Below, piece after piece: positions 10,763 to 49,739 of a stretch of DNA of 64,000 nt (the first letter of the stretch is position 1; every line of letters starts with the position of its first letter). Both the position numbers and the translations under genes were made by a program. The stretch comes from Calliopum simillimum. Taxonomy: Eukaryota; Arthropoda; Insecta; Diptera; Lauxaniidae. Below the pieces are notes generated by a model. That model ran no database searches. It was not told the DNA's origin and saw only the letters and a list, made by a program, of their open reading frames with translations. The stretch spans positions 80,954,909 through 81,018,908 of the forward strand of contig OX638368.1 in NCBI GenBank assembly GCA_951812925.1. The letters are read 5' to 3'.

Positions 10763-12949
10763 TTAGCTTATTGGTGTGTCAACAACACTTGAATTCGTAT
10801 GCCTTGGCTGATTAAAAAGTCACGTATATTTGTAGCGGTGAGAGCCAAAATCGGAAAAATAAACATCAATCCTAAAAATATTAGAATGATATCGTATAAA
10901 TACAGCAAAAGAAAATCAAAAATAAGCAAAAATTACCATGTTGCCAAAAAAATTTAAATTTGTAATCGAAGCAGTTGAATCTTGTGAAAAAAAACCCTGG
11001 TTCATAGTAGGAACAACACCTAGTAGGAATGAATGATTTACACACGGAAAAGTTCCGAAGATAGTTTCTTTTAAATTTTTCGAACGCAGAAACAGTATGA
11101 TAATTCATTTTGTGATAGTACTCAACTCAAAGATAGGAGATACGTATGACTATAATTGTAATTACAAAATAAAGTAGTTTGAAAATGTTTTGAACAGACA
11201 CATTTATGTGCTAGTAGTTGCGAGATTCATCTCAGTAGAATAGACTTATTATTTGTCAGTGTACATTACCTTAATTTACATGTGAATTAGATTCATTCTT
11301 GGCATAAACACTTGGAAATTAATATGTTAGTATTCTGTATAAAAATGAAAGAGTAATGCTATGTAATGCAATAAGCTTGTACCGCTATTGGTTATTTTTG
11401 AAAACACAATGCTGTAAAGATACATGAGTTTACGACATCAGGGTCCAATCTTTGATGTTCCCGTGCCTCGACACTCATGAGTATTCGAGTCAAAGGGCCG
11501 GCTTTGTGGCGGACAGGTACCGTTTGCACAATCATTGTTCTGCCTGAACGGGGACAGTCATAGTAAACGTTCTGAAAGTGCACTACATTGCAAAGCAAAA
11601 AGATTAAAGTCAACCAACTTCGTAGAACTGGTTGAAAAAAGATGGGAGGTTGAGTTTCCGACATAGTGGCCGGTCGATCTTTCTGTTTGGAGAAGTCAAC
11701 GTGCAACTTCAGTATCATTAGAAAAGTTTGTTAAACTAAAATTAATGCAACTGTTTGCCTTACAAATATAAATTTTCTGGAGTGTGGAGTTACATGCAAC
11801 TTGCATCCAAAAGATAAAAGAAGAATACTGCAGCAAAAATTCCATTAATTTTGAGACAAGAAGTAAAGGGTTCTCTTACTAATAGTCAAATTACGAAAGG
11901 CGGTAGTCAGAAGAAAATCCTATCAAATTTATTTCCGCCGCACTGCCAAACTCATTGGACAATTATAAATCGTCGAAAGTAACAGCACGCTAGATTTCAT
12001 CACGATAAGTGGTCGGAAAATTCCCGCTTCTACACAACAATTTGTTCCTGCTATATGAGGCTTAGTTTTTGGTAACGCCATCAAGAAAATACTATCAAAG
12101 CTAAAATAGTGTTGTAGGCCCGGATACGAAAGCACAATACGTGAACAATAAAAAAACATCCGAAGACAATAGAACTAGCGACTACCAATTCTCATCATTG
12201 CCTACTAATATTCACCACGTTAATGCCATCAAGACAACTAAGCACATTCTGCAATACTTCATCATAATCCTTAGCATAATTCAGAAAGAAAGCCACGTCG
12301 ATCGGGGCCCACCACATCTGAAAATCCAACAAGCTACAACATTCAACCAAAAACAACACCAACAGTCGACAGCAAAATTGTCCGACTTGTGAAGGATTCA
12401 ATAAAATAAGCAATCATGGTGACAAAAAAATAAGTAAAAGAAATCACAAATTTTAAGTTGTTTGAAAAATATTGAAGGTTTGCAGAAAGTGAATAGGTTA
12501 GGGAGATCCAAAAAAAAAAAGGAAAAATGTAAATTGCCTAAAAAAAGAAAAACTATCATCACAAAAAGATATTTTTTATTGGTTTCTATAATTTTGTTTT
12601 ATTATTTAAATAATAAAAAGAATTCAAGAATAATTAACTAAAAATAAAAAAATTGGTAGAAACTAAAAAGAAAAAAATATAAATTAAGAAAATGTATGTG
12701 TCAAATTAGAGTAAGAATTAAGTGAAGAAATCAGCTACAGATATTGTATCAAGGTTTATTTATACGACGTAATTTTGTTTTTCTTTTCAAAATTTTTTTT
12801 GTGAGAAAATGTATATTTCACTATAAATTCAAAGTCTCTGTAGGAATTGGCCAAACCCTATAGAGTATATAAAGACTGCAGGATTTCTATAAAAGCGGAA
12901 ACGATTAACCGATAACTTTATCTTGCTATAAATAAACCTTATAGAGGAA
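10763..12949. other. unresolved 2.2-kb stretch with scattered frames
   Basis: I see no family motif on either strand. The longest frame is 108 codons on the minus strand (11392-11718), with a Cys/Arg-Pro-rich middle and no homology I can name. Frames of 72-83 codons overlap on opposite strands at 12141-12413. Composition is less AT-rich from 11390 to 12400 than in the flanks, which could mean decayed coding DNA, perhaps of a retroelement. From 12420 to 12949 the sequence is A-rich and empty. Confidence 0.35.
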
Positions 12950-13373
12950 GTTGATTTTATTTTAATTGAACTTTTAGTCATATATTTGCAAAGATCGATT
13001 TACATATAAATCTATCAAACATATGTCACTATAGCCGTGTTTTTAATCCGTTCCTTGATTTGTCATAATTATGTGTTAGAAAAACGCATTGATAGATTTA
13101 TATGTAAATCGATCTTTGCAAATATATGACTAAAAGTTCAATTAAAATAAAATCAATTTTCAATATAAAATGTCATTAAGTAACACACTTAAAAATTCTT
13201 AAAAGTTATTTGGGAGAACACGCCCTGATAAGGTGGAAACACCTGCAATCGGTATTGAATTTCTTCCAAAGGAACAACTATACCAAATATCAATAAATAA
13301 CACAAAACAACAATTATGATATATCAATACGTATTAACACACAAATAAAACTGGCAAAAAGTCGGCTTCGCAG

Positions 13374-13445
13374 CCGGGCAAGGCTGGTGCAGTGGTAACG
13401 ACTTCTGCTACCAACCTGGAGATCCTTGGTTCGTCTCCCGCCCAG
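13374..13445 (+). ncRNA. tRNA-like Pol III head, monomer 1
   Basis: TGGTGCAGTGG (13385-13395) fits the A box and GGTTCGTCTCC (13428-13438) the B box, 43 bp apart as in tRNA genes. The acceptor stem does not pair well, so this is a tRNA-derived promoter as in SINEs rather than a functional tRNA. Confidence 0.7.
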
Positions 13446-13531
13446 ACCAAAAACACAAAAAGTTTTCAAACTTGCAATTTTTCAATTATAATTAATTTAG
13501 TAAAATAAATATAATTATAATTACAACAAAA

Positions 13532-13578
13532 ATAGTCTGATGAGTCTTTGTGGCGAAAGACGAAACATATGTCACTAT
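13532..13578 (+). ncRNA. hammerhead ribozyme, type I, copy 1
   Basis: The invariant core is complete: CTGATGA (13537-13543) and GAAA (13562-13565). Stem II is GTCTTT/AAAGAC (6 bp, loop 13550-13555). Stem I is ATAGT (13532-13536) with ACTAT (13574-13578), 5 bp. Stem III is the self-complementary CATATG, followed by the cleavage triplet GTC with the scissile bond after 13573. Such a short palindromic stem III is known from animal hammerheads, which cleave best as dimers of tandem copies; here copies are in tandem. Self-cleavage is inferred from structure. Confidence 0.85.
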
Positions 13579-13836
13579 AGCCGTGTTTTTAATCCGTTCC
13601 TTGATTTGTCATAATTATGTGTTAGAAAAATGCATTGATAGATTTATATGTATATTATATTCTTAAAGTTATTTGGGAGAACACGCCCTGATAAGGTGGA
13701 AACACCTGCAATCGGTATTGAATTTGTTCCAAAGGAACAACTATACCAAATATCAATAAATAACACAAAACAACAATTATGATATATCAATACGTATTAA
13801 CACACAAATAAAACTGGCAAAAAGTCGGCTTCGCAG

Positions 13837-13908
13837 CCGGGCAAGGCTGGTGCAGTGGTAACGACTTCTGCTACCAACCTGGAGATCCTTGGTTCGTCTC
13901 CCGCCGAG
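13837..13908 (+). ncRNA. tRNA-like Pol III head, monomer 2
   Basis: The A box is at 13848-13858 and the B box at 13891-13901, identical to monomer 1 in both boxes. Confidence 0.7.
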
Positions 13909-13994
13909 ACCAAAAACACAAAAAGTTTTCAAACTTGCAATTTTTCAATTATAATTAATTTAGTAAAATAAATATAATTATAATTACAACAAAA

Positions 13995-14041
13995 ATAGTC
14001 TGATGAGTCTTTGTGGCGAAAGACGAAACATATGTCACTAT
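13995..14041 (+). ncRNA. hammerhead ribozyme, copy 2
   Basis: It is identical in core and stems to copy 1: CTGATGA at 14000-14006, cleavage predicted after 14036, and the stem I partner ACTAT at 14037-14041. Confidence 0.85.
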
Positions 14042-14160
14042 AGCCGTGTTTTTAATCCGTTCCTTGATTTGTCATAATTATGTGTTAGAAAAATGCATTG
14101 ATAGATTTATATGTAAATCGATCTTTGCAAATATATGACTAAAAGTTCAATTAAATAAAA

Positions 14161-14526
14161 TCCATTTTTAATAAAAAGCAAATTAAGGCTAAAATCAAAA
14201 ATGTGTTCGTCTCAATTGTTTTAAAAAAAAATTTAAATAATGAAATATATAAAAATATATTTGAAAAAAGTAAACATTGTGTCGTGATTTGGTAAACGCC
14301 AAAAAAGTGTCGTTGAATTGATTGATGACTCATCCAGGTAAAAGGTAAGAACGTGGTTCTGTGATTATCAAGATTTTCTGATTTAAGGCTGGTTAACCAG
14401 GCAAGTGAAAATAGGATATTAGACTTAGCAAAAAACTTTTTTTTTATCATCAACAAAATCAAAAAATTGCATTTATTTTAAATTAATATTATTAAAAACA
14501 AAAATTTTTATCTCTCAAGTATTTTA
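14161..14526. other. flank between array and P-like element (left arm)
   Basis: There is no gene. A CTGGTTAACCAGGCAAGTGA block at about 14390-14408 is one end of the TIR element that encloses the array in the right arm (47154-49353). Its partner is missing on the left because the inverted duplication breaks off inside the array. Confidence 0.6.
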
Positions 14527-14964
14527 AGCTATAACATGGTTCAGTAACAATGGTTATGGCAAGCTGTCAAAATAAAAAAATGGAACCCTGCATCTTGCCT
14601 TGCTATCTGTCAAAAGACTAGAATCAAAACAAAGAAAGAAGTCATTTGGGATTGCTGATTTGCAAGTGGTTGCGGTAGGACGTGTTTTTCTGTGATTTGT
14701 GATTTGATAAATTCAACTTGTGTAAATTAAGTATTCGCCATTTTGAGCTGCGAGGTTGGAAAATTTTGTAAGTTTTTTCAAAAACTTTTTTTATGATTTT
14801 TCAGCACCGTGCATTTGTTTTGCATTAACGTTTAAACTTTTTGTAGTGTTATTTTACATATTTATTTTTTCATTTATAGTGGTTAAATTTCTTTTTTATC
14901 TTTTTTGTCTTACCGCTCATTTTTTGTTTTTGCATCGCGTTTTTTGCGCTAAAAGTAGCACAAA

Positions 14965-15261
14965 ATGGTGTGGCCTGCGGACTACATCATACGTGAGGCA
15001 GACATTGATGGAAAAAATGAGGTTAGGGCTCCCCGGCCTCGTTGTTATTTGGACATTGATTATCCCAGATCTTTGGAAATAATTGTTCAATCTAAGGATA
15101 ATTCTTCCTTAAATGTAATGGGTATTAGTAAACATATTTATGCTAAATATAAAAATTTGGACATTTACTTCTTAACAAAGAAGAAGTTGAAGGTTGTCAC
15201 CCAGGTTTTTGATGTGGCCAACAAGATTGCCTCCGATGTTTTTTTACTTGAAAACTATAAT
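14965..15261 (+). pseudogene. LINE ORF1 (gag-like), N-terminal part, left copy
   Basis: About 99 codons from an ATG run until the hairpin MITE at 15264. The frame reads on into the MITE but this is not native. In LINEs of this class ORF1 is an RNA-binding protein that packages the element RNA. The second half resumes after the palindrome at about 16790. The right copy (46607-46311) is nearly identical. Confidence 0.7.
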
Positions 15262-15263
15262 AT

Positions 15264-15454
15264 CCCAGTGTGCCAGACGGTTCAAATCTCCGCTTTTTTA
15301 TCCGTTACGAATCCGTTACTGATCCGTTGGCGGGAGAGATTCCCAAAAAAAAAGTGAATCGTTTTTTTTTTTTTGGAATTTCTCCCGCAAACGGATCAGT
15401 AACGGATCCGTAACGGGTAAAAAAGCGAAGATATGAATCGTCTGGCACACTGGG
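15264..15454. mobile_element. hairpin MITE, copy 1
   Basis: This is an almost perfect palindrome starting CCCAGTGTGCCAGACGGTTC and ending with its complement, with GATCCGTTAC words and an A/T-rich centre. Flanks read AT on both sides. Copies occur at 23827, 46130, 51561 and (half) 62452. It interrupts LINE ORF1. Confidence 0.8.
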
Positions 15455-15455
15455 A

Positions 15456-16808
15456 TAGCCCAGGAAAATAAGACATTTCCTGCGAAAAAATTCCCAGTGG
15501 AAATTTTTCACCGGAATAGTCTTTATTTATGCATGATACATAAACTGTGAAAAGTCCATTGCAAAGTCGTGTGCGCATAAAAAGTTATTAAGGCTCAAAG
15601 GTCGCTAAAATCAGTTTTTTGCAAATATCTCGCTAATTCTAACTTTTACAGAAAAATGTTGGTCTTCAATTTTGTAGCATAGGAAATTTCCTACAAAAGT
15701 ACGTTAAAAGTATTTGCGTACGACTTCTAGTTTAGGATATCACCCAATTTAAAAAGTTGTTAACAGTTATGATATGAAATACTACCTATGAGTTCATATT
15801 AAAATATCTTACTTTTTAAATTGCAATAACTCTTCAATGAGAAGTTGTATTTACAAACAAAATTAAAATGCCGTTTGAAAGATAATTTAATTTTCTATAT
15901 ACCGTATACATTTTTTTTTTCGAACGGCTCATGACCTTAAAAATATTCTTGAATAACCGTTAAGGCTTCGAAATTACTGGTTTTTTAAGGATATCTGCGA
16001 ATTGGTAAGTACTACGATAAAAAGTAATGGGACCAAATTTGTAGAAAATTACAAGATCTACAAAAAATAAGCGATACTTGTACACATAGAAGTAACCGTT
16101 TAGAAGATATTCCAAAAAAACCCTTAAAATGCCAAAAAACCGGTTTCTATTGAATATCTTCTATACGGTTACTTCTATGTGTACACATATCGCTTATTTT
16201 TTGTAGATCTTGTAATTCTCTACAAATTTGGTCCCCTTACTTTTTATCGTAGTACTTACCAATTCGCAGATATCCTTAAAAAACCAGTAATTTCGAAGCC
16301 TTAACGGTTATTCAAGAATATTTTTAAGGTCATGAGCCGTTCGAAAAAAAAAATTTATACGGTATATAGAAAATAAAATTATCTTTCAAACGGCATTTTG
16401 TTTGTACAACTTCTCATTGAAGAGTTATTGCAATTTAAAAAGTAAGATATTTTAATATGAACTCATAAGTAGTATTTCATATCATAACTGTTAACAACTT
16501 TTTAAATTGGGTGATCTCCTAAACTAGAAGTCGTACGCAAATACTTTTAACGTACTTTTGTAGGAAATTTCCTGTGCTACAAAATTGGAGACCAACATTT
16601 TTCTGTAAAAGTTAGAATTAGCGAGATATTTGCAAAAAACTGATTTTAGCGACCTTTGAGCCTTAATAACTTTTTATGCGCACACGACTTTGCAATGGAC
16701 TTTTCACAGTTTGTGTATCATGCATAAATAAAGACAATTCCGGTGAAAAATTTCCACTGGGAATTTTTTCGCACAGAAGCTCTTTTTTCGTCTTATATTC
16801 CTGGGCTA
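15456..16808. repeat. 1.35-kb near-perfect palindrome inside LINE ORF1
   Basis: The arms of about 660 bp mirror each other around 16132. The outermost part, TAGCCCAGGAA, pairs with TTCCTGGGCTA on the right, and the right part also encodes LINE residues (the frame continues there). No target duplication was found. Short frames beginning at a GTGAAAAATTTCC stretch on both arms are not genes. Confidence 0.75.
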
Positions 16809-17462
16809 AATACACACATTCCTTCAGAATTATGTGAGGTGAAAGGGGTGGTTCTGATCCCTATTTCATACTCTGAAAAAGAGATTTTTGTTAATGGTTT
16901 TGGAAAGAACATGATGCAGTATGGGACTTTGTCTAAATACTGTAAACTAACGGAAGTGAAGCGTTTAAATAGGAAGGATGCTGCTAATCCGAGTGTTCGA
17001 ATCGATTCTGACTTGGTTCTGATTTGCTTTTCGGGGAGAATTTTACCGTCTCATGTGCATCTTGATGGGGTAAATTTTCCTGTTAATCCGTATCGGGAGA
17101 ACGTCATGCAGTGTAGGAAATGTTGGAGATTCAACCATTCGGAACGTGCGTGTAGTCGTGCAAACAAGTTGTGCTGTAATTGTGGTTTGCATCACGCGGA
17201 ATCTGTGTTTTGTAACACTTTTAAATGTGTTAATTGTGGCGGTGCCCATAAGGCATCAGATCAATCTTGCTCTATTTTTAAAAAAATTTTTAATATCAAG
17301 TCTGATAAGGCTAATAAAAGTAAGCCAACAGTTATTTCATTTGCTTCTTCATCTTATGCCAAACCTAATGAAGTTGAGTTTATTAATAATTTACCAAAAA
17401 GTAACCCTTTCAAATTTGATGTTGTGGACTTTCCCACAATTTCTTCAAGATTGAATCAATAA
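16790..17462 (+). pseudogene. LINE ORF1, zinc-knuckle half, left copy
   Basis: Three cysteine motifs are present (a C-x2-C-x4-H-x4-C knuckle starting CRKCWRF, then CCNCGLHH and CVNCGGAH), the usual nucleic-acid-binding end of LINE gag-like proteins. A deletion of about 220 bp relative to the right copy removes the C-terminus and brings a TAA at once. Confidence 0.75.
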
Positions 17463-17539
17463 TGTGTCTTCTTAGTGAGAGTGGTGCTCCTGAGGAGAGA
17501 GTTCGTAGAGACAGACTAAAGCCAGTTTTTAAATCTATT

Positions 17540-18400
17540 CTTGAAAACATTGAAACTGTTGATGAAGATTGTTCAGTTTAACTGCACAAGTATTCGTAAT
17601 AAAAACAACAAATTGAGCAGTGTTTCTTTGAAAATAAGATATCTTTGGGCTGTCTCTCGGAAACTTTTTTGTTGCCGTCTGACGATTTTGTAATTAAGAA
17701 TTTTAATATCATTAGGGCAGATCGCCCCTTTTCTGCTAATCGTGGTGGTGGGGTGGCGATTGTTTATGACAAGTTTTTAAAGGTTAAAAACCTTAATATA
17801 ACTTCGCCAATTGATTCAATTGAAGTCTGTGGATGTGAAGTTTTTACGGATAAGGGTGTCCTTACTGTACTTTCTTTTTATCTACCGCCAAATTGTAATC
17901 TCTCGGTCTCTAATTTGGATAGAATTTTGTCTGGTATAACATTTTCATCAATTATAATTTGTGGAGATTTCAACGCTCATAATATTTGTTGGGGTAGTCG
18001 TGTAACTGACTCTAGAGGTAGAAAGGTTTTGGATTTCATTGAGAGTCATGATTTCATGTTGCTGAACAATGGAGATCCGACCCATTTTGGTCATTCAATT
18101 TCTAGTATAGACTTGACATTTTGTTCAGGCAATATTGGATTATATTCTCTGTGGAGCGCCACGAAAGAAACGCTTGGCAGTTCGCATTGCATTATTAAAA
18201 TTGATTTTAACTTTTCTCCTCTTTTCAAAAGTTTTACAAAATTTATAGTTCCGAAGTCTATCGACAAAAGCTTTCTAAATAAAAAACTTTGCGAGGTTTT
18301 TATGTCTCCTAAGTTTGATTGTCCTTCATCGGATAGTAAGCTCGATATGTTTGCGCAAGTTTTTTTGATGCTTTTAAAATTAAAGCAAAAAATAAAATGA
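17540..18400 (+). pseudogene. LINE ORF2 endonuclease domain, left copy
   Basis: This is an APE-type endonuclease: GDFNAHN-WGS, SSIDLTF and LGSSH motifs lie in the expected order (about 17960-18190). It nicks target DNA to prime reverse transcription. A 10-bp insertion near 17565 and a frameshift near 17640 break the start of ORF2. Confidence 0.75.
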
Positions 18401-19802
18401 AAGCCCCGAACCCATGGTGGAATGCGGAGTGTAATAGAATTAGTGCTGTCCTTAGATCAGTAGTGAGAAAGTTTAAATTTTGTCTTTCAAGAAGTAATTT
18501 TGAGGAGTTGAAGAAAACAAAAAAGGATTATAGATATATTTTGAGAATAGAAAAAAGGAATGGATGGAGAAAATTTGTGAAAGCATTAACAGCAATATGA
18601 CTGTTGCTGAGCTATGGAGAACTGTTAAGTGTTTTAAGGGAAATTTTTCAAATAGTATTGCGAGTCTGGGAGAGTGTTTGTCTGAGTTTTGTGATGCTCT
18701 GGCTGGTCCTATGGGTCCTTTTTGCTTCGTATCACCTGGCATTGGTCATAATGATCATTTTTTGTTGCATCCAATTGCCTTTTCGGAGTAGGATAAAGCA
18801 ATTAGTGTATCCAAGAACTCTGCGCCTGGAATTGATGGGTTGCGAAATCAACATTTAAAATCATTTAATTCTGGTCACAGGTTTAAGTTGCTCGAGATGT
18901 TCAATGAGATTCTTACTAGTGGATTTATTCCTTATTGTTGGTTTCAGTACAAAATAATGCCCCTCAAAAAAAAAAAAAACTGCTCATCTACACTTGCCTC
19001 GTCTTATCGTTCTATCGCGTTGGGTTCGACCTTGCGGAAAATTTTTGAGCGTATTTTATGTGCCCGTTTGGAATGGTTTCTTGAGTCACAGTCTAAAATA
19101 AGTAACAGTCAGTCAGGTTTTAGGAAATGGAAGCCCACTGCCGATAATGTCATTACATTATGGTCTGCTGTGTAATTAACATTTCTTAAAAAAGAGAACA
19201 TGGTAGCTGTCTTTCTTGATATCAAGGGAGCATTTGATAATGTGAATATAAAACTCCTGTGGGCTAGATTAAAACTATTAGGTGTTCCTAACAAGTTTTG
19301 CGATTTCATTTATTGTCTCTTTCAATTTAAAGATTTATACATTCAAAATGATGACGGGTATGTAATCAGGCACTCCTTTACGGGCGTGCCCCAAGGCTGT
19401 GTTCTTAGCCCTATATGCTTTAATTTGTATATAGATGAAGTTTTTGGTGACATCATAGATGACGTGCACGTTTTGGGATATGCTGATGACATCGTAATTT
19501 TTTGTTCTCATTCTGATGTGTCTCTAGCAAGGGCCAAGGTTCAAACTGCTCTTTCTGCCATTGTGGGTCGCCTTTCAGAATTACAGTTGGAGTTGCCTAT
19601 TTCGAAACCTAAGGCAATGATTTTTACTAAAAGGACTAAAAATTTGCATAACACTTTGCCCCTGCATATTGGCTCAAATGACATAGCATTTGTTGACACC
19701 TTCAACTTTCTTGGGTTCACTTTTCATAAGCATCTGTTGTTAAGGCATCATGTTGATCGGCTAGTGAAGATGTATCTTGGGGCTCCGATCCTCATTGCAT
19801 GA
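18397..19802 (+). pseudogene. LINE ORF2 reverse transcriptase, left copy
   Basis: The linker (NPWWNAEC) leads into the RT. Motifs seen: APGIDGLRNQ, a SYRSIAL-type block, FLDIKGAFDNV, GVPQGCVLSP and the active site GYADD (about 19480). In-frame stops at about 18791 and 19173 and a poly-A slip near 18970 kill it. Confidence 0.8.
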
Positions 19803-21151
19803 TTCGTCTGTACATTGGATTGATAAGACCTAAGTTGGAATATATGGCTCCTCTGCTGTTGGATTGTTCTAAAAAGGATTTTCTGAAATTGCAACGTATT
19901 CAGTGGAAAGCATTGCGTATTTCACTTGGTGCTATGATTTCCACGCACACTCTTGATTTAGAACAAATAGCTAATGTTATGCCACTTCCGGAGCGTTTAG
20001 CATTTTTAACAGAGGGCGTCATAAACAAAATATGTTCAATTGATAGTCATCCTGCTAGGTCTTTTATATTTCAAATTCTTGAATTTTCAAATGTACCTTC
20101 TTTTTTTAAAAAATTTTCAGAGAAAATGCAAAAGGTGGAATTTATTCCTCACAATGCTCGCCCTTTTTTTACAGTTCCTTTTGAGGCTTTGTTGTTTAAA
20201 CCTGTGGTGAATTTTCTCCCGGTTTCTAAGGCAACGGCGTCAATAGATGAAGTCAAAGAAAAAATCAACAGATTTATTGCTCGAAAAAAAAAATTTAGAA
20301 AAGTCTTTACAGATGGTTCAAAAAGTTCTGATTCGGTTGGTAGTGGAATTTGGATGCCTGATATAGACATCGAGGCATATTTTTCCTCAAACCCAATTGC
20401 ATCTATTTATTCAGCTGAAGCGTTAGCAATTTTTGATGCTATTAAACTGGTTTCGGTACAAGATACGCGTAAATTTCTTATTATCTCAGACAGTAAATCT
20501 GCATTAATGGCTATATCTGGGTATTGTAGAAATGAAACTCATCCATATATTTTTCAGATCAAATCCCTTTTGTTGGAGCTTAGGAATAAGGGTGTGCAGA
20601 TTCATTTTCTTTGGATTCCTAGTCATATGGGAATTGAAGTATATGATTATGTGGACCAGGTTGCGTCGGGTCATTTGTTCACTCGGAGTGTTGAACGTCT
20701 TCCTGTTAACTTCACTGATGTTAGACCTGTTGATAAGCAGGTAGAATTCAACAAATGGCAATCTCGTTGGAATGATTCGGAATTTGGGCGGCATTTATTT
20801 CAAATAGCCTCTCTTGTTAACAAATCTGCTTGGTTTAGTAGTATAAATTTGCCTCGGAAATTTGTCACAATGATAAACAGGCTTAAGTTTAACCACTCTA
20901 GGTGTAAAAGTCATCTTTATAAAATCAATATAATAAAGTCTGAAGTTTGTACTTGTGGCGCAGTTCAAACTTCTGAACATCTTTTGTTTCATTGCCCTAA
21001 TTTGGACAATGCCCATAGAACACAACTTTTTAGCACAATGCACGGTGCTGAAATAACGTCTCGCAGCTTAACGGATCTGCTGAAATTAGGTAATATTGAC
21101 ATTTTTAGGTCAATTTTTCAGTTTTTTACGAAATGTGAAATTGATATCTGA
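19799..21151 (+). pseudogene. LINE ORF2 RNase H and C-terminus, left copy
   Basis: The frame is open for 450 codons. RNase H motifs TDGSK, SAEALAI, SDSKSALMAI and WIPSHMGI are present. A terminal C-x-C-x8-H-x4-C finger (CTCG to HCP) follows, as in I-type LINEs. It is out of frame with the RT upstream. Confidence 0.8.
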
Positions 21152-21954
21152 AAGATATCGCAAATTTGCAAATCAGCAATCTTTATGTTAAGTCCTTGTT
21201 ATTTTTTGTTGGTATATATTGTATGGTATATATGTTGTATTCTATGTATATCATAGTTCTTATATAAGTTCTCATGTTAATTCTTAAATAAGTTTTTTGT
21301 TACTTTTGTTACCTTTATAACGTTTTTGAAAAAAAAGAAACAAAAAAGTCGATAAAAAATTAAAATATCGAAAAAAAGAAAAAAATCGTAAAAAGAAAGC
21401 TATGACAAAGAAAAAAACAAAAAAAAAAAAACAAAAATTTTAATTAAGATTTAAAAGGTTAGAAATCTTAACATCGCTTCAAAATTAGGATTTCAAACAC
21501 AGATACAGTTTAATTGTATCGTATCATACATTACGCTAAAGGCTACGCTAAAAACTTCGAGTTTGAATTAGCCTTTTCTCGCCAGTCAACTGTGCTGTCA
21601 GATTGACAGCATAACTTAAGAAGAAAGAAGTCATTTAAAAATTTTTAATTCAATTGGTTTCTAAATTTTTAGAATTTTAATATTCAGGAAAGCAGAAAAG
21701 CACGTAAGGTTTTTGTTTATCATCGTAAATAACTCCTAAATTATTGTTTTCTATTTAGTTGCGCAAATGGAAATGGTTAGAAAACACCAGCGAAATATGC
21801 CGCCAAGCATTATTATTGCCATCTTCAGCGTCATCACTTTCAGCATCTTGATATTCCAAGTGCACCAATAGCTGTACCACTAGCTCCTGCAGCGACTACA
21901 CCCACACCAGCACCAGACAACGTACATCAAGACTCAATTTTGCTTCACCAACAA

Positions 21955-31531: not shown

Positions 31532-32731
31532 CCCCAAAAAGAAGTTGACTTGGTGTTTTTTTTGGGCTACTATGAAACACAATCAGCATGCTCAATCGGT
31601 TCACTTATTTTACTTAACATTGATTTAATCGCCCTGTTCACACCCTCTACCTGCCCGTTTGCCTGAGGTGAAGCCACAGCTACTTTAACATGTAATATTA
31701 GGGTGTCTCTTATTTGGGAAAAGTCAAAATTTTATGCCGCGCTCCCCCAGAATCGAAAGACTTTGAGAAAAAAATGAGATCCCCTAAACGACAGGTTTTT
31801 TTAAACGAATTAACCTGTGTCACGAAGACATTCAAATTTATATGAAAATTAACATAGATTTTATATACTTCTTGTTTTAACTTGCTGGGAATCGCGTTGC
31901 CTGAAATATTTTTCGCCATCAAATGTGTATCTTATTGTTTTTCGGGTCGCTGAACACGATACAAGTATCAAAATTAAATTTTGACAGCTGTCAACGGCTA
32001 CACGTGTCGACACAAGCTACTGGTTTAACCTCCATTGGTGTTTTGATTTGAAATCAGCTGTCAAAATTTAATTTTGACACTTGTATCGTGTTCAGCGACC
32101 CGAAAAACAATAAGATACACATTTGATGGCGAAAAATATTTCAGGCAACGCGATTCCCAGCAAGTTAAAACAAGAAGTATATAAAATCTATGTTAATTTT
32201 CATTTAAATTTGAATGTCTACGTGACACAGGTTAATTCGTTTAAAAAACCTGTCGTTTCGGGGATCTCATTTTTTTCTCAAAGTCTTTCGATTCTGGGGG
32301 AGCGCGACATAAAATTTTGACTTTTCCCAAATAAGAGACACCCTAATGTAATATACTATTACGATGTAAAAAGTTACTAAATTCGTTTGATGTGAAACAA
32401 GTGCCTCTATCAGAAATTATTCGCCTAGGCTGACTATAGTAACTGAAATATTAATCTAATGCGCAACAAACTTCCTTTGTACTTGTAGAATTTACGGGAT
32501 ACAATCTTACAAATTTCGTGAACGTTATTGATGGTAAAGGACCAATAATTTTTCCTTACTCATCGTAACACTTATCTTTTCCCAAATGTCCAATTTTCTC
32601 ATGAATCATTCTTATTATATTATCTTCCATCTCACTAGGGACATACAACAACAATTGGTCATTAGAACATTTGCGAAAAACTAACCCATTACACAATTCA
32701 AAATTTTCCACCTCGCCAATTTCAAGTTTGT
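31532..32731 (-). pseudogene. gypsy B integrase, N-terminal and core part
   Basis: From 32731 downward the minus strand shows the integrase finger region and an IISDRGTCF block up to about 32355. It is then interrupted by the foldback at 31699-32345, and continues with ASPQANGQVEGVNR and TPSQLLFG to 31532, where gypsy A is inserted. Several stops are present. Confidence 0.75.
31699..32345. mobile_element. palindromic element with 9-bp TSD ATGTAATAT
   Basis: The inverted ends are TAGGGTGTCTCTTATTTGGG on both sides and arms of about 300 bp mirror each other around 32020. ATGTAATAT stands at 31690-31698 and 32346-32354. Removing the element restores gypsy B integrase. A 9-bp TSD fits Mutator-like or Merlin-like elements better than hAT; no transposase is present. 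Frames of 65-70 codons reading MMAKNISGNAIPSKLK occur on both arms and may be the start of a lost gene. Confidence 0.8.
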
Positions 32732-38686: not shown

Positions 38687-39669
38687 AAAAAAACTTAAAA
38701 CGCATGCTACGAGCTTCACTTTCTGTTGTAAAAAAATCGTTGCCGCTAAAGTAAACTTAGTCCAATTGTTGGTGAAGCAAAATTGAGTCTTGATGTACGT
38801 TGTCTGGTGCTGGTGTGGGTGTAGTCGCTGCAGGAGCTAGTGGTACAGCTATTGGTGCACTTGGAATATCAAGATGCTGAAAGTGATGACGCTGAAGATG
38901 GCAATAATAATGCTTGGCGGCATATTTCGCTGGTGTTTTCTATCCATTTCCATTTGCGCAACTAAATAGAAAACAATAATTTAGGAGTTATTTACGATGA
39001 TAAACAAAAACCTTACGTGCTTTTCTGCTTTCCTGAATATTAAAATTCTAAAAATTTAGAAACCAATTGAATTAAAAATTTTTAAATGACTTCTTTCTTC
39101 TTAAGTTATGCTGTCAATCTGACAGCACAGTTGACTGGCGAGAAAAGGCTACTTCAAACTCGAAGTTTTTAACGTAGCCTTTAGCGTAATGTATGATACG
39201 ATACAATTAAACTGTATCTGTGTTTGAAATCCTAATTTTGAAGCGATGTTAAGATTTCTAACCTTTTAAATCTTAATTAAAATTTTTGTTTTTTTTTTTT
39301 TTGTTTTTTTCTTTGTCATAGCTTTCTTTTTACGATTTTTTTCTTTTTTTCGATATTTTAATTTTTTATCGACTTTTTTGTTTCTTTTTTTTCAAAAACG
39401 TTATAAAGGTAACAAAAGTAACAAAAAACTTATTTAAGAATTAACATGAGAACTTACAATATATACCAACAAAAAATAACAAGGACTTAACATAAAGATT
39501 GCTGATTTGCAAATTTGCGATATCTTTCAGATATCAATTTCACATTTCGTAAAAAACTGAAAAATTGACCTAAAAATGTCAATATTACCTAATTTCAGCA
39601 GATCCGTTAAGCTGCGAGACGTTATTTCAGCACCGTGCATTGTGCTAAAAAGTTGTGTTCTATGGGCAT

Positions 39670-40344
39670 TAGGCATGCGCTTATATTGCGATTTTCTGAT
39701 TTTCGTTCATGCCGCCCCCTGAAATCCTTCTAATGGTCATAAAAACAAATACTATGAAGTTTTACGGCGATCGGATAACGATAACCCGGCCCGCAAGAGA
39801 GGTCAAGGTCAAGTTGAGGTTTCAGGCAAAACATAATGAAAATTTTTTTTAAACTTAATTAAATTAGTCAAAGCATAACTTTATCTTATAGCAAATTTAA
39901 ACACCTTTCCAACAAGCTATAATTGTTTAAAATCAGGTAATAAATACGATTTCTATGAATTTTTCTTTTATCGACATTAGCAAAATTGCCGCAAAATGCT
40001 ATTCTACTACATATGGTATTTTGCGGCAATTTTGTTAATGCCGTAAAAGAAAAATTCATAGAATTCGTATTTATTACCCGATTTTAAACAATAACAGCTT
40101 GTTGGAAAGGTATTTCAATTTGCTATAAGATAAAGTTATGCTTTGACTAATTTAATTAAGTTTAAAAAAAATTTTCATTATGTTTTGCCTGAAACCTCAA
40201 CTTGATCTTGACCTCTCTTGCGGGCCGGGTTATCGTTATCCGATCGCCGTAAAACTTCATAGTATTTGTTTTTATGACCATTAGAAGGATTTCAGGGGGC
40301 GGCATGAACGAAAATCAGAAAATCGTAAAATAAGCGCATGCCTA
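39670..40344. mobile_element. hAT-type palindromic MITE, complete, TSD ATGGGCAT
   Basis: Perfect 8-bp repeats ATGGGCAT (39662-39669 and 40345-40352) and 14-bp inverted ends TAGGCATGCGCTTA. The 675 bp fold into one large hairpin centred near 40007. The TSD fits nTnnnnAn. The empty site is seen in the left LINE copy at about 21008-21015, which proves insertion. Confidence 0.9.
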
Positions 40345-40352
40345 ATGGGCAT

Positions 40353-41562
40353 TGTCCAAATTAGGGCAATGAAACAAAAGATGTTCAGAAGTTTGAACTG
40401 CGCCACAAGTACAAACTTCAGACTTTATTATATTGATTTTATAAAGATGACTTTTACACCTAGTGTGGTTAAACTTAAGCCTGTTTATTATTGTGACAAA
40501 TTTCCGAGGCAAATTTATACTACTAAACCAAGCAGATTTGTTAACAAGAGAGGCTATTTGAAATAAATGCCGCCCAAATTCCGAATCATTCCAACGAGAT
40601 TGCCATTTGTTGAATTCTACCTGCTTATCAACAGGTCTAACATCAGTGAAGTTAACAGGAAGACGTTCAACACTCCGAGTGAACAAATGACCCGACGCAA
40701 CCTGGTCCACATAATCATATCCTTCAATTCCCATATGACTAGGAATCCAAAGAAAATGAATCTGCACACCCTTATTCCTAAGCTCCAACAAAAGGGATTT
40801 GATCTGAAAAATATATGGATGAGTTTCATTTCTACAATACCCAGATATAGCCATTAATGCAGATTTACTGTCTGAGATAATAAGAAATTTACGCGTATCT
40901 TGTACCGAAACCAGTTTAATAGCATCAAAAATTGCTAACGCTTCAGCTGAATAAATAGATGCAATTGGGTTTGAGGAAAAATATGCCTCGATGTCTATAT
41001 CAGGCATCCAAATTCCACTACCAACCGAATCAGAACTTTTTGAACCATCTGTAAAGACTTTTCTAAATTTTTTTTTTCGAGCAATAAATCTGTTGATTTT
41101 TTCTTTGACTTCATCTATTGACGCCGTTGCCTTAGAAACCGGGAGAAAATTCACCACAGGTTTAAACAACAAAGCCTCAAAAGGAACTGTAAAAAAAGGG
41201 CGAGCATTGTGAGGAATAAATTCCACCTTTTGCATTTTCTCTGAAAATTTTTTAAAAAAAGAAGGTACATTTGAAAATTCAAGAATTTGAAATATAAAAG
41301 ACCTAGCAGGATGACTATCAATTGAACATATTTTGTTTATAACGCCCTCTGTTAAAAATGCTAAACGCTCCGGAAGTGGCATAACATTAGCCATTTGTTC
41401 TAAATCAAGAGTGTGCGTGGAAATCATAGCACCAAGTGAAATACGCAATGCTTTCCACTGAATACGTTGCAATTTCAGAAAATCCTTTTTAGAACAATCC
41501 AACAGCAGAGGAGCCATATATTCCAACTTAGGTCTTATCAATCCAATGTACAGACGAATCAT
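40353..41562 (-). pseudogene. LINE ORF2 RNase H and C-terminus, right copy
   Basis: Same domain as 19799-21151, with the same TDGSK, SDSKSAL and WIPSHMGI motifs and a few substitutions. The MITE cuts it after the HCPNLDNAH stretch; the tail continues at 39661-39529. Confidence 0.8.
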
Positions 41563-42797
41563 GCAATGAGGATCGGAGCCCCAAGATACATCTTCACTAG
41601 CCGATCAACATAATGCCTTAACAGCAGATGCTTATGAAAAGTGAACCCAAGAAAGTTGAAGGTGTCAACAAATGCTATGTCATTTGAGCCAATATGCAGG
41701 GGCAAAGTGTTATGCAAATTTTTAGTCCTTTTAGTAAAAATCATTGCCTTAGGTTTCGAAATAGGCAACTCCAACTGTAATTCTGAAAGGCGACCCACAA
41801 TGGCAGAAAGAGCAGTTTGAACCTTGGCCCTTGCTAGAGACACATCAGAATGAGAACAAAAAATTACGATGTCATCAGCATATCCCAAAACGTGCACGTC
41901 ATCTATGATGTCACCAAAAACTTCATCTATATACAAATTAAAGCATATAGGGCTAAGAACACAGCCTTGGGGCACGCCCGTAAAGGAGTGCCTGATTACA
42001 TACCCGTCATCATTTTGAATGTATAAATCTTTAAATTGAAAGAGACAATAAATGAAATCGCAAAACTTGTTAGGAACACCTAATAGTTTTAATCTAGCCC
42101 ACAGGAGTTTTATATTCACATTATCAAATGCTCCCTTGATATCAAGAAAGACAGCTACCATGTTCTCTTTTTTAAGAAATGTTAATTACACAGCAGACCA
42201 TAATGTAATGACATTATCGGCAGTGGGCTTCCATTTCCTAAAACCTGACTGACTGTTACTTATTTTAGACTGTGACTCAAGAAACCATTCCAAACGGGCA
42301 CATAAAATACGCTCAAAAATTTTCCGCAAGGTCGAAGCCAACGCGATAGAATGATAAGACGAGGCAAGTGTAGATGAGCAGTTTTTTTTTTTTTTGAGGG
42401 GCATTATTTTGTACTGAAACCAACAATAAGGAATAAATCCACTAGTAAGAATCTCATTGAACATCTCGAGCAACTTAAACCTGTGACCAGAATTAAATGA
42501 TTTTAAATGTTGATTTCGCAACCCATCAATTCCAGGCGCAGAGTTCTTGGATACACTAATTGCTTTATCCAACTCCGAAAAGGCAATTGGATGCAACAAA
42601 AAATGATCATTATGACCAATGCCAGGTGATACGAAGCAAAAAGGACCCATAGGACCAGCCAGAGCATCACAAAACTCAGACAAACACTCTCCCAGACCCG
42701 CAATACTATTTGAAAAATTTCCCTTAAAACACTTAACAGTTCTCCATAGCTCAGCAACAGTCATATTGCTGTTAATGCTTTCACAAATTTTCTCCAT
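41559..42797 (-). pseudogene. LINE ORF2 reverse transcriptase, right copy
   Basis: The frame is open from 42797 to a TAA near 42186 and again from 42161 to 41559. It has the GVPQGCVLSP and GYADD motifs. Unlike the left copy the stretch around 42620 is open (SELDKAIS), so the left stop there is private. Confidence 0.8.
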
Positions 42798-43889
42798 CCA
42801 TTCCTTTTTTCTATTCTCAAAATATATCTATAATCCTTTTTTGTTTTCTTCAACTCCTCAAAATTACTTCTTGAAAGACAAAATTTAAACTTTCTCACTA
42901 CTGATCTAAGGACAGCACTAATTCTATTACACTCCGCATTCCACCATGGGTTCGGGGCTTTCATTTTATTTTTTGCTTTAATTTTAAAAGCATCAAAAAA
43001 ACTTGCGCAAACATATCGAGCTTACTATCCGATGAAGGACAATCAAACTTAGGAGACATAAAAACCTCGCAAAGTTTTTTATTTAGAAAGCTTTTGTCGA
43101 TAGACTTCGGAACTATAAATTTTGTAAAACTTTTGAAAAGAGGAGAAAAGTTAAAATCAATTTTAATAATGCAATGCGAACTGCCAAGCGTTTCTTTTGT
43201 GGCGCTCCACAGAGAATATAATCCAATATTGCCTGAACAAAATGTCAAGTCTATACTAGAAATTGAATGACCAAAATGGGTCGGATCTCCATTGTTCAGC
43301 AACATGAAATCATGACTCTCAATGAAATCCAAAACCTTTCTACCTCTAGAGTCAGTTACACGACTACCCCAACAAATATTATGAGCGTTGAAATCTCCAC
43401 AAATTATAATTGATGAAAATGTTATACCAGACAAAATTCTATCCAAATTAGAGACCGAGAGATTACAATTTGGCGGTAGATAAAAAGAAAGTACAGTAAG
43501 GACACCCTTATCCGTAAAAACTTCACATCCACAGACTTCAATTGAATCAATTGGCGAAGTTATATTAAGGTTTTTAACCTTTAAAAACTTGTCATAAACA
43601 ATCGCCACCCCACCACCACGATTAGCAGAAAAGGGGCGATCTGCCCTAATGATATTAAAATTCTTAATTACAAAATCGTCAGACGGCAACAAAAAAGTTT
43701 CCGAGAGACAGCCCAAAGATATCTTATTTTCAAAGAAACACTGCTCAATTTGTTGTTTTTATTACGAATACTTGTGCAGTTAAACTGAACAACAGTTTCA
43801 ATGTTTTCAAGAATAGATTTAAAAACTGGCTTTAGTCTGTCTCTACGAACTCTCTCCTCAGGAGCACCACTCTCACTAAGAAGACACAT
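42761..43889 (-). pseudogene. LINE ORF2 start and endonuclease, right copy
   Basis: ORF2 begins near 43889 and shifts frame near 43690; the endonuclease frame 43716-42961 keeps GDFNAHN, SSIDLTF and LGSSH. The 10-bp insertion of the left copy is absent. Confidence 0.75.
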
Positions 43890-46607: not shown

Positions 46608-47528
46608 TTTGTGCTACTTTTAGCGCAAAAAACGCGATGCAAAAACAAAAAATGAGCGGTAAGACAAAAAAGATAAAAAAGAAATTTAACCACTATAAAT
46701 GAAAAAATAAATATGTAAAATAACACTACAAAAAGTTTAAACGTTAATGCAAAACAAATGCACGGTGCTGAAAAATCATAAAAAAAGTTTTTAAAAAAAC
46801 TTACAAAATTTTCCAACCTCGCAGCTCAAAATGGCGAATAATTAATTTACACAAGTTGAATTTATCAAATCACAAATCACAGAAAAACACGTCCTACCGC
46901 AACCACTTGCAAATCAGCAATCTCAAATGACTTCTTTCTTTGTTTTGATTCTAGTCTTTTGACAGATAGCAAGGCAAGATGCAGGGTTCCATTTTTTTAT
47001 TTTGACAGCTTGCCATAACCATTGTTACTGAACCATGTTATAGCTTAAAATACTTGAGAGATAAAAATTTTGGTTTTTAATAATATTAATTTAAAATAAA
47101 TGCAATTTTTTGATTTTGTTGATGATAAAAAAAAAGTTTTTTGTTAAGTCTAATATCCTATTTTCACTTGCCTGGTTAACCAGCCTTAAATCAGAAAGTC
47201 TTGATAATCACAGAACCACGTTCTTACCTTTTACCTGGATGAGTCATCAATCAATTCAACGACACTTTTTTGCGTTTACCAAATCACGACACAATGTTTA
47301 CTTTCTTCAAATATATTTTTATATATTTCATTATTTAAATTTTTTTTAAAACAATTGAGACGAACACATTTTTGATTTTAGGCTTAATTTGCTTTTTATT
47401 AAAAATGGATTTTATTTAATTGAACTTTTAGTCATACATTTGCAAAGATCGATTTACATATAAATCTATCAATGCATTTTTCTAACACATAATTATGACA
47501 AATCAAGGAACGGATTAAAAACACGGCT

Positions 47529-47575
47529 ATAGTGACATATGTTTCGTCTTTCGCCACAAAGACTCATCAGACTAT
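47529..47575 (-). ncRNA. hammerhead ribozyme, copy 3
   Basis: Core and stems are as in copy 1, read on the minus strand. The tRNA-like head of this monomer has its B box at 47670-47680 and A box at 47712-47722. Confidence 0.85.
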
Positions 47576-48075
47576 TTTTGTTGTAATTATAATTATATTT
47601 ATTTTACTAAATTAATTATAATTGAAAAATTGCAAGTTTGAAAACTTTTTGTGTTTTTGGTCTGGGCGGGAGACGAACCAAGGATCTCCAGGTTGGTAGC
47701 AGAAGTCGTTACCACTGCACCAGCCTTGCCCGGCTGCGAAGCCGACTTTTTGCCAGTTTTATTTGTGTGTTAATACGTATTGATATATCATAATTGTTGT
47801 TTTGTGTTATTTATTGATATTTGGTATAGTTGTTCCTTTGGAACAAATTCAATACCGATTGCAGGTGTTTCCACCTTATCAGGGCGTGTTCTCCCAAATA
47901 ACTTTAAGAATTTTTTTTAAGTGTGTTACTTAATGACATTTTATATTGAAAATTGATTTTATTTAATTGAACTTTTAGTCATATATTTGCAAAGATCGAT
48001 TTACATATAAATCTATCAATGCATTTTTCTAACACATAATTATGACAAATCAAGGAACGGATTAAAAACACGGCT

Positions 48076-48122
48076 ATAGTGACATATGTTTCGTCTTTCG
48101 CCACAAAGACTCATCAGACTAT
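48076..48122 (-). ncRNA. hammerhead ribozyme, copy 4
   Basis: Core and stems are as in copy 1, on the minus strand. The B box is at 48216-48226 and the A box at 48259-48269. Confidence 0.85.
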
Positions 48123-48894
48123 TTTTGTTGTAATTATAATTATATTTATTTTACTAAATTAATTATAATTGAAAAATTGCAAGTTTGAAAACTTTTTGTG
48201 TTTTTGGTCTCGGCGGGAGACGAACCAAGGATCTCCAGGTTGGTAGCAGAAGTCGTCACCACTGCACCAGCCTTGCCCGGCTGCGAAGCCGACTTTTTGC
48301 CAGTTTTATTTGTGTGTTAATACGTATTGATATATCATAATTGTTGTTTTGTGTTATTTATTGATATTTGGTATAGTTGTTCCTTTGGAACAAATTCAAT
48401 ACCGATTGCAGGTGTTTCCACCTTATCAGGGCGTGTTCTCCCAAATAACTTTAAGAATTTTTTTTAAGTGTGTTACTTAATGACATTTTATATTGAAAAT
48501 TGATTTTATTTAATTGAACTTTTAGTCATATATTTGCAAAGATCGATTTACGTATAAATCTATCAATGCATTTTTCTAACACATAATTATGACAAATCAA
48601 ATCATTTGCAATCGGTATTGAATTTGTTCCAAAGGAACAACTATACCAAATATCAATAAATAACACAAAACAACAATTATGATATATCAATACGTATTAA
48701 CACACAAATAAAACTGGCAAAAAGTCGGCTTCGCAGCCGGGCAAGGCTGGTGCAGTGGTAACGACTTCTGCTACCAACCTGGAGATCCTTGGTTCGTCTC
48801 CCGCCCAGACCAAAAACACAAAAAGTTTTCAAACTTGCAATTTTTCAATTATAATTAATTTAGTAAAATAAATATAATTATAATTACAACAAAA

Positions 48895-48941
48895 ATAGTC
48901 TGATGAGTCTTTGTGGCGAAAGACGAAACATATGTCACTAT
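48895..48941 (+). ncRNA. hammerhead ribozyme, copy 5
   Basis: Core and stems are as in copy 1, on the plus strand; cleavage is predicted after 48936. The A box is at 48748-48758 and the B box at 48791-48801. Confidence 0.85.
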
Positions 48942-49110
48942 AGCCGTGTTTTTAATCCGTTCCTTGATTTGTCATAATTATGTGTTAGAAAAATGCATTG
49001 ATAGATTTATATGTAAATCGATCTTTGCAAATATATGACTAAAAGTTCAATTAAATAAAATCAATTTTCAATATAAAATGTCATTAAGTAACACACTTAA
49101 AAAAAATTCT

Positions 49111-49739
49111 TTATTAAAAATGTTTTATTTGTTTACATTTTGCATTTGTCAAAAGAAAAGGAAATTTCCTAATTTTCCTGGAATTTTTTAGCTTGGAGAT
49201 GCCACCTGCCGATTTTTTGGGTTAAATGATCCAATTGTTTAAAAACTAGCTAATCTTTTCCATACAAATCGAAAAGCTTTTTATATGGAAAACTACCAGT
49301 TGGTGCTTAATCAGCATTCATCTGGTTAACCAGGCAAGTGAGAATAGGGTATAGCTGTAGTATTTTTTGTTATTTTGGAATTTATTGCATTATAATTGCT
49401 TTAAAAGAAAAAACAAAACCGAAAAGAGTGATTTCAACGAATAGAAATATTTATTGCCGAAACTAACATAAAAAAGAAGAAATTTAATCTTCTTTGGTTT
49501 TAATAGTTTTAATTGAAATTAATAATTTTTTTCTTCAAAACCAATAATGAGAAGAGCACTGCTGTACAAAAGTGATTTAAAAAGTTAAATGTTTTTATAA
49601 GATACTGTAGTCATTAACAGCACTTAATAATGAAAACAAAGATTCAATTTTATCAAAAAGTAAAAAGTAATGCAACTTTTTAAAGTTAATTTTTTTACTA
49701 TACAAATTTTATCATTTCTTTTAAGGGTTCTTAACTTTT
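49111..49739. other. AT-rich stretch, no gene seen
   Basis: Apart from the end of the TIR element near 49322-49353 nothing is recognised. Confidence 0.4.

What the first reader, a model, noticed from the sequence alone, without database searches (positions are those of the whole stretch)
13532..14041. Tandem monomers each carry a complete type I hammerhead ribozyme
Five copies in the window (13532, 13995, 47529, 48076, 48895) have the full CTGATGA/GAAA core, a GTC cleavage site, a 6-bp stem II and a 5-bp stem I that pair perfectly. Stem III is the palindrome CATATG, which favours dimeric cleavage, and the copies are in tandem. The monomer boundary set by cleavage gives circularisable units of 463-547 nt. 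This is the pattern of retrozymes and of hammerhead satellites, and it is far from chance.
Basis: partly seen in the sequence, partly recalled or inferred. Interest (0 to 1): 0.92.

Follow-up and report, generated by a model that had tools for sequence, protein, structure and literature searches.

The report
Ribozyme-bearing jumping RNA in an insect
These repeats belong to a large family of small jumping sequences that carry a self-cutting RNA motif, and the scars they leave in the genome suggest that each jump copies one small RNA, probably a circle, from both cut DNA strands, as Penelope-type elements do.

Summary
The Rfam score is weak (21.5 bits, gathering 34), since stem III is only 2 bp in cis; the palindrome ACATATGT suits cleavage as a dimer.
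The window lies in a 690-Mb genome with 1,478 exact copies of the 37-nt motif. I compared 59 loci. Insertions are not simple tandem repeats: 38 of 62 clusters are two head-to-head arms with RNA-3' ends outward, one ending at unit position ~130 (A), the other at ~178 (B); A+A 0, B+B 1. Flanks carry target duplications, a 13-nt one in the window. Head-to-tail units differ far less than loci do, and both arms carry the same family variants (123/126 against 63%).
This is the insertion signature of Penelope-like elements (PLEs) with their one-sided 'tail'. Best reading: a non-autonomous animal retrozyme copied from one circular or self-identical RNA by a PLE enzyme. PLE-like genes with hammerheads exist here, but no matching partner was found. 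Cleavage and circles are untested.

The parts
47534..48080 (-). reference unit U, 547 nt, from just after one cleavage site (GTC|ACTATAG) to the next
13531..13577 (+). hammerhead ribozyme motif, copy 1
13994..14040 (+). hammerhead ribozyme motif, copy 2
47530..47576 (-). hammerhead ribozyme motif, copy 3
48077..48123 (-). hammerhead ribozyme motif, copy 4
48894..48940 (+). hammerhead ribozyme motif, copy 5
47408..49109 (.). two-armed insertion with target duplication: A end at 47408, B end at 49109 (limits set by the duplication)
47408..48600 (-). A arm: about 2.2 units head to tail, outward 3' end near U130-141
48607..49109 (+). B arm: from U218 through the hammerhead to U~175
47395..47407 (.). 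target-site duplication, left copy (TTTATTAAAAATG)
49110..49122 (.). target-site duplication, right copy (TTTATTAAAAATG)
12939..14177 (.). left array: A-type ends on both sides, units of 546 and 463 nt, no duplication seen by eye; largely an inverted copy of the A-arm side of the right insertion, at the edge of a 9-kb inverted duplication
13376..13442 (+). tRNA-like module with pol III type A box (13385-13395) and B box (13428-13438)
   Evidence: not called by ARAGORN or by Rfam
13839..13905 (+). tRNA-like module, A box 13848-13858, B box 13891-13901
47665..47731 (-). tRNA-like module, A box 47712-47722, B box 47669-47679
48216..48269 (-). A box 48259-48269 and B box 48216-48226 of a variant tRNA-like module
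48739..48805 (+). tRNA-like module, A box 48748-48758, B box 48791-48801
49084..49100 (+). hairpin TTAAGT-AACAC-ACTTAA inside the 'tail' between the A and B ends (also 13176-13192 +, 48464-48480 -, 47917-47933 -)

Best explanation
A non-autonomous retroelement of the metazoan retrozyme type in an insect genome (perhaps a fly). Its ~547-nt RNA carries a dimer-type type I hammerhead, is read as multimers, cuts itself into units and is closed into a circle (inferred). A Penelope-like enzyme nicks both strands of a target roughly 8-15 nt apart and starts reverse transcription on that RNA at two fixed internal sites, A (U~130) from one strand and B (U~178) from the other (inferred from the scars). 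Each cDNA runs 5'-ward, sometimes several times round, until it stops; the two cDNAs are then joined head to head, which leaves a two-armed insertion with an A end, a B end (= A plus a ~48-nt tail) and a target duplication (structure shown). Both arms come from one RNA sequence (shown, gene conversion aside), so probably from one molecule (inferred).
For: Two-armed A+B in 38 of 62 clusters, A+A 0, B+B 1; one-armed A 10, B 4; other 9; independent ends would give 19.5 mixed of 39, P 7e-11. Shared word of 8 nt or more at the two flanks in 32 of 40 clusters against 13% of 1,560 mismatched pairs; 10 nt or more 27 of 40 against 3%. Head-to-tail units differ at 8 of 8,848 sites, loci at 3.07%; the two long arrays L046 and L048 give 0 of 7,112 of these, the seven other multimeric loci 8 of 1,236 (0.65%), three comparisons between separate clusters 0 of 500. 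L048's five units do not differ among themselves (U118-184 left out) yet lie 4.4% from U. At 14 family-variable sites opposite arms agree 123/126 against 63% between loci, and opposite-arm differences are mostly private (80 of 92; between loci 54%). Neighbouring hammerheads within 4 kb among the first 100 listed places: -+ 8, +- 0 of 21 pairs; GIY-YIG hits -+ 4, +- 0 of 6 pairs among 51. PLE precedent: the Anolis PLE protein cuts both strands and starts RT at two adjacent internal sites, which explains the tail (PMC11167929, parts 1-2 of 4 read); Adineta PLEs have inverted pLTRs, a 31-bp tail on one of them and 8-10-bp duplications (PMC3846280, passages). GIY-YIG frames up to 841 aa in this genome, 13 of 15 3' flanks with CTGANGA..GAAA motifs (no shuffled control), and a 32-nt difference by eye between copies of one such family (L074 against L072).
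Against: No PLE sharing the A/B region was found among 16 fetched flanks of 51 listed hits; the best match, L080 275-306 to U104-137 (85%, E 5e-4), is AT-rich and not convincing. The tail (~48 nt) is longer than the 30-40 bp reported. Exceptions: outer 3' ends at U73-80 in L041, L067, L069, at U100 in L033, at U547/U2 in L054, at U426 in L058. The window's left array has A ends on both sides and no duplication. Opposite arms differ at 71 of 4,776 sites (1.5%), more than units of one arm, which I read as later private mutations. Five of 48 stops at U1-8 (0.96 expected) hint at cleaved templates, but the window was chosen after the fact. No RNA data. Shared alleles of the arms could in part reflect gene conversion between arms or two RNAs from one locus.
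Confidence: 0.7

Rival explanations
1. A tRNA-derived SINE moved by a LINE, with inverted arms made by ordinary twin priming; the hammerhead is a passenger.
For: tRNA-like module with A and B boxes; a LINE lies in the window; duplications of about 10 nt are also seen for LINEs (recalled).
Against: In LINE twin priming (recalled) the inverted part starts at a site that varies from copy to copy; here both arms mostly start at two fixed sites, one A and one B. The window's self-comparison shows no match of 60 bp or more between the unit and the LINE (a shorter shared 3' end would be missed). Identical head-to-tail units crossing the cleavage site need a circular or multimeric template. T4 and T5 runs at U437 and U452 should hinder pol III between the B box and the hammerhead (terminator rule recalled).
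Confidence: 0.12
2. Fragments of the pLTR of an autonomous PLE rather than a family of its own.
For: PLEs carry hammerheads, tails and inverted arms, and PLE-like genes here carry similar motifs.
Against: The unit recurs as a closed repeat with no long reading frame shared among loci; none of the 16 fetched PLE-like flanks matches it convincingly.
Confidence: 0.1
3. DNA-level origin: a satellite spread by unequal exchange, or a foldback or Helitron-like DNA transposon with the unit in its ends.
For: Inverted ends, tandem units, palindromes elsewhere in the window.
Against: Inner arm ends are scattered while most outer ends are fixed; the two ends differ; units within an arm are near identical while loci differ by 3%; target duplications.
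Confidence: 0.05
4. The hammerhead is inactive or dispensable and the insertions need no ribozyme.
For: Weak Rfam score; in the Anolis PLE the ribozyme was not needed for insertion in vitro (PMC11167929).
Against: Descriptor hits far above shuffles; 1,478 exact copies; 13 of 15 PLE-like flanks of this genome carry a similar motif. The exact-motif count cannot show selection, because loci were chosen for it.
Confidence: 0.15

Closest known systems
Metazoan non-LTR retrozymes (Cervera and de la Pena 2020, PMC7229834)
   Same: Type I hammerhead, short multimers, thousands of copies, non-coding
   Different: Unit 539-568 nt here, ~170-400 there; tRNA-like module here; PLE mobilisation was only a 'strong candidate' there, and in the sections and passages I read insertion structure is not described ('target site' and 'inverted' do not occur in the text)
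Penelope-like elements and their hammerheads (PMC11167929, PMC3846280)
   Same: Two RT start sites giving a one-sided tail, head-to-head arms, target duplications of about 10 nt, hammerhead with a very short stem III
   Different: No coding capacity; tail ~48 nt; A+B pairing nearly obligatory; the PLE-like flanks fetched from this genome share no clear sequence with it
Schistosoma SMalpha
   Same: Hammerhead in an element called SINE-like (passages of PMC8490949); its pol III boxes are recalled
   Different: No sequence or end comparison made
Dolichopoda pDo500 satellite (PMC2837043, search listing and start of abstract only)
   Same: Hammerhead in an insect repeat, recalled length ~500 bp
   Different: Described as satellite DNA; here dispersed insertions
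Plant LTR retrozymes (PMC4918200, listing only; features from PMC7761336 passages)
   Same: Non-autonomous, hammerhead, circRNA intermediate
   Different: Type III hammerheads and LTR features there; type I and no LTR apparent here

Membership tests
Hammerhead ribozyme, type I | CUGANGA and GAAA core, NUH site, three stems, open stem I | tested here: met
   stem III only 2 bp in cis
Hammerhead ribozyme, type I | Rfam RF00163 at gathering score | tested here: not met
   21.5 of 34 bits
Hammerhead ribozyme, type I | Self-cleavage | not testable with these tools
   folding only: the monomer prefers another fold; dimer hammerhead with 8-bp stem III -21.1 kcal/mol, unconstrained cofold -23.4
Metazoan retrozyme | Non-coding unit bounded by type I hammerheads, present as multimers | tested here: met
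   five motif copies at 544-nt spacing at C1:54422858-54425070
Metazoan retrozyme | No LTR, PBS or PPT | not tested
   none apparent in the unit, no search made
Metazoan retrozyme | Circular RNA in the animal | not testable with these tools
   only indirect: near-identical head-to-tail units
Metazoan retrozyme | Unit of ~170-400 nt | tested here: not met
   539-568 nt; the same paper also speaks of circles of 150 to >1000 nt
PLE-type insertion | Two fixed RT start sites, extension on one side only | tested here: met
   38 A+B, 0 A+A, 1 B+B of 62 clusters
PLE-type insertion | Short target duplication | tested here: met
   window 13 nt
PLE-type insertion | Partner PLE with the same RT start region | tested here: inconclusive
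   not found in 16 flanks next to 15 of 51 listed GIY-YIG hits
Penelope-like element (autonomous) | RT plus GIY-YIG ORF in the unit | tested here: not met
   no frame of 150 aa or more over the arrays of the window; it is not itself a PLE
tRNA-derived SINE | A and B boxes, tRNA-like fold | tested here: inconclusive
   boxes present; B box GGTTCRACTCC in many copies, T at the invariant A in the youngest subfamily; no ARAGORN or Rfam tRNA call

The most novel reading that the evidence does not exclude
Each insertion is a record of one hammerhead-made RNA circle used as template by both subunits of a PLE enzyme at once, one starting at site A from one DNA strand and one at site B from the other, so that A+B pairing is obligatory; PLEs are thus the missing movers of animal retrozymes.
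Probability: 0.4. Interest if true: 0.8.

Novelty: new variant of a known kind. Interest (0 to 1): 0.62.

Why it matters
How animal retrozymes get back into DNA is open; PLEs were proposed on circumstantial grounds (PMC7229834). Many insertions in one chromosome-scale genome let that be read directly: fixed A and B start sites, a one-sided tail, target duplications and two arms from one RNA sequence. The near-obligatory A+B pairing adds a constraint on PLE chemistry itself: in vitro the start sites did not differ between strands, whereas in these scars each two-armed insertion takes one of each. Among the papers listed by the searches (up to 20 shown per search, open-access library only, mostly seen as title and start of abstract) I saw none that reports this for a retrozyme.

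Tried and rejected
Copies elsewhere: degenerate hammerhead patterns gave 0 in viral contigs and 0 in genome contigs (records of the window's own genome may be left out there). Simple satellite: rejected by dispersed, two-armed insertions with duplications. A large composite element: the 5 kb between L037 and L038 is a Ty1/copia element nested in one A..B insertion, with CATATCCTTTTAC at both outer flanks by eye. Stops at the cleavage site: my first stop positions were distorted because the query began at U1; redone with a rotated query. In one search I listed 52 arms (48 stops) by hand; one of them (B arm of L025) should have been left out, because its partner arm lacks the hammerhead, and L044 (a stop at U1) was left out as unclear. 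Result: 5 of 48 stops at U1-8, 0.96 expected, P 0.003 uncorrected; U1-2 2 against 0.23; U1-14 5 against 1.7; suggestive only. B arms stop at U101-133, at the A site, 9 times against 3.2 expected; over all arms that stretch has 9 against 5.8 (P 0.14), and A arms in the like-sized stretch U90-122 have 1 against 2.8; suggestive only. Without the 80-column filter, one search counts 30 same-arm differences (24 private); most (L013 9, L022 4, L047 2) lie at arm ends next to the inversion point and look like alignment overrun. Pol III as the promoter of the whole unit: doubtful, because T4/T5 runs follow the B box. Host: LINE relatives include Haematobia (42%) and moths at 27% or less; the gypsy RT gives mixed arthropods; so 'perhaps a fly' is weak. 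Count of the tRNA-like module outside the unit: not completed. Bias of the sample: the loci lie in the first 55 Mb of C1 and were picked for at least one exact 37-nt motif; conclusions on end structure should not depend on the motif, those on ribozyme conservation would, so I make none. Segments under 60 nt or under 85% identity to U were left out.

Full report
OBSERVATION. The five hammerhead copies are real; exactly five descriptor hits exist in the window, and shuffles give 0.01 per window. Rfam supports them only below its cut-off. Stem I is AUAGU/ACUAU, stem II GUCUUU/AAAGAC, and stem III is A-U plus C-G around AUAU in cis, or the 8-nt palindrome ACAUAUGU between two molecules. ViennaRNA prefers another fold for the isolated monomer (-8.9 against -5.0 kcal/mol for the hammerhead); one hammerhead of the dimer, drawn with the 8-bp stem III, evaluates to -21.1, and the unconstrained cofold optimum, which is not a hammerhead, to -23.4.

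GENOME. The window is part of a 690-Mb, 334-contig genome with 744 + 734 exact 37-nt motifs, of which the first 100 places were listed. I fetched 60 stretches from the first 55 Mb of contig C1 and three longer ones. After replacing L037 and L038 by L049, which spans both, and leaving out L050 and L051 (repeats of L046 and L048), 59 loci gave 62 clusters.

INSERTION ANATOMY. With U as the 547-nt unit that starts after the cleavage site, 38 of 62 clusters have two arms that point away from each other. One arm ends outward at U116-152 (A, typically ..AAATCAATT or ..AATCAATTTTC), the other at U160-190 (B, typically ..CACTTAAAAATTCTTAAA). A+A 0, B+B 1 (L044, unclear), one-armed A 10, one-armed B 4, other 9: L033 and L067 (one-armed, ends at U100 and U74), L041 and L069 (ends at U80 and U73 opposite a B and an A), L054 (U547/U2 opposite a B), L058 (U426 opposite an A), L046 (ends hidden by neighbouring older repeats; A and B by eye), second half of L049 (B end of the split insertion), first cluster of L070 (partial). 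The one-armed A count holds L017 twice (one insertion in a duplicated stretch) and the first half of L049. Independent ends would give 19.5 mixed of 39. Inside, the arms stop at scattered places.

TARGET DUPLICATIONS. In the first 40 clusters (L037 and L038 still apart, L017 twice, L046 and the window left out) a shared word of 8 nt or more joins the flanks in 32, against 13.1% of 1,560 mismatched flank pairs; 10 nt or more in 27 against 2.9%. Because ends and targets are AT-rich, exact lengths are uncertain. In this window the right-hand insertion has TTTATTAAAAATG at 47395-47407 and 49110-49122.

TEMPLATE. Units head to tail within an arm differ at 8 of 8,848 aligned sites (33 comparisons), different loci at 3.07% (6,950 comparisons), opposite arms of one insertion at 71 of 4,776 (36 comparisons) (U118-184 and overlaps under 80 columns left out). 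The low first figure rests on two arrays: L046 and L048 give 0 of 7,112; three comparisons between separate clusters (L017, L070) 0 of 500; the remaining seven loci 8 of 1,236 (0.65%). Opposite-arm differences are mostly private (80 private, 12 shared) while 46% of between-locus differences are shared family variants. At 14 sites with a minor allele in at least 5 loci, opposite arms agree 123 of 126 times, same arms 223 of 225, different loci 18,351 of 29,166; 25 of 28 informative loci agree fully. So each insertion copies one RNA sequence, on both arms and over several rounds. A monomeric circle explains this most simply; a multimer from a homogeneous locus, two RNAs of one locus, or later gene conversion between arms are not excluded. 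Comparisons within a locus are not independent of each other.

PLE LINK. The PLE protein of Anolis cuts both strands and starts reverse transcription at two adjacent internal RNA sites, which makes the 30-40-bp 'tail' (PMC11167929, parts 1-2 of 4). Adineta PLEs show inverted pLTRs, a 31-bp tail on one of them and 8-10-bp duplications (PMC3846280, passages). The retrozyme shows the same architecture with a ~48-nt tail that contains the hairpin TTAAGT-AACAC-ACTTAA. The genome has 51 listed GIY-YIG matches (a lower bound: 150 of 209 candidates scored) with open frames up to 841 aa. Of 15 fetched 3' flanks, 13 have CTGANGA..GAAA downstream of the frame (nine with GAAATGCAT, one with GAAACGTC, three of one family with GAAATATT), one is degenerate (L087) and one has none on that strand (L076). 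No shuffled control was run for these, and CTGANGA alone also occurs elsewhere in some flanks; most have one extra base before stem II. I did not test these genes for the RT domain, so 'PLE' rests on GIY-YIG, frame length, hammerhead and tail. One family shows a copy without (L074) and a copy with (L072) a 32-nt extension, by eye. Neighbouring GIY-YIG hits are -+ 4, ++ 1, -- 1, +- 0; the first 100 listed hammerheads -+ 8, ++ 7, -- 6, +- 0. No PLE with the retrozyme's own A/B region was found, so the partner is unknown.

tRNA-LIKE MODULE. U338-430 has an A box (TGGTGCAGTGG) and a B box (GGTTCGTCTCC in the youngest subfamily, GGTTCRACTCC in many others; box consensus recalled). Eight of the 14 variable sites lie in U372-420. 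Neither ARAGORN nor Rfam calls a tRNA. T4 at U437 and T5 at U452 make full-length pol III reading doubtful. Its role is open.

WINDOW CONTEXT. A 9-kb inverted duplication (13.0-21.95 kb against 39.5-48.1 kb, ~99%) holds a LINE with endonuclease, RT and RNase H; the right-hand insertion lies upstream of that LINE, and the left array is largely a rearranged inverted copy of its A-arm side.

LITERATURE. PMC7229834: abstract, sections 14 and 17, and passages; PMC7761336: passages; PMC8490949: passages; PMC10886601: abstract and outline; PMC2837043 and PMC4918200: listing only. The 2014 PLE hammerhead paper and the 2017 dimer paper are not held and are known to me from citations and recall. Searches.

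VERDICT. Ordinary in class (animal retrozyme), unusual in what the scars show. Shown: motif, copy number, two-armed A+B structure, duplications, one RNA sequence per insertion (gene conversion aside). Inferred: cleavage, circle, PLE enzyme, one molecule per insertion.

Noticed in passing
window 13017-21954 and 39456-48091: About 9-kb inverted duplication, ~99% identical, holding a LINE; several near-perfect palindromes (15481-16773, 31697-32347, 39667-40347, 49740-50726) lie in the same window.
   Followed up: partly
L046 500-940 and 2830-3020: Diverged hammerhead relatives beside a gene whose frames read like pumilio (recognised by eye): short units that fold back on themselves with the core on both strands, and a relative with a changed but still pairable stem II.
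   Followed up: no
G000 contigs C183 and C104: GIY-YIG matches of 44-47 bits in 612- and 622-aa frames could be bacterial UvrC (guess from length), so these contigs may be a symbiont or contaminant.
   Followed up: no
L041, L067, L069: Outer 3' ends at U73-80 in three loci, a possible third start site or deletions.
   Followed up: no
L046 tandem units: Two consecutive full units have 564 and 568 nt although they show no differences outside U118-184, as if a run in the tail slipped anew on each round.
   Followed up: no
window 59798-60441: Separate tandem repeat with a 142-bp period.
   Followed up: no
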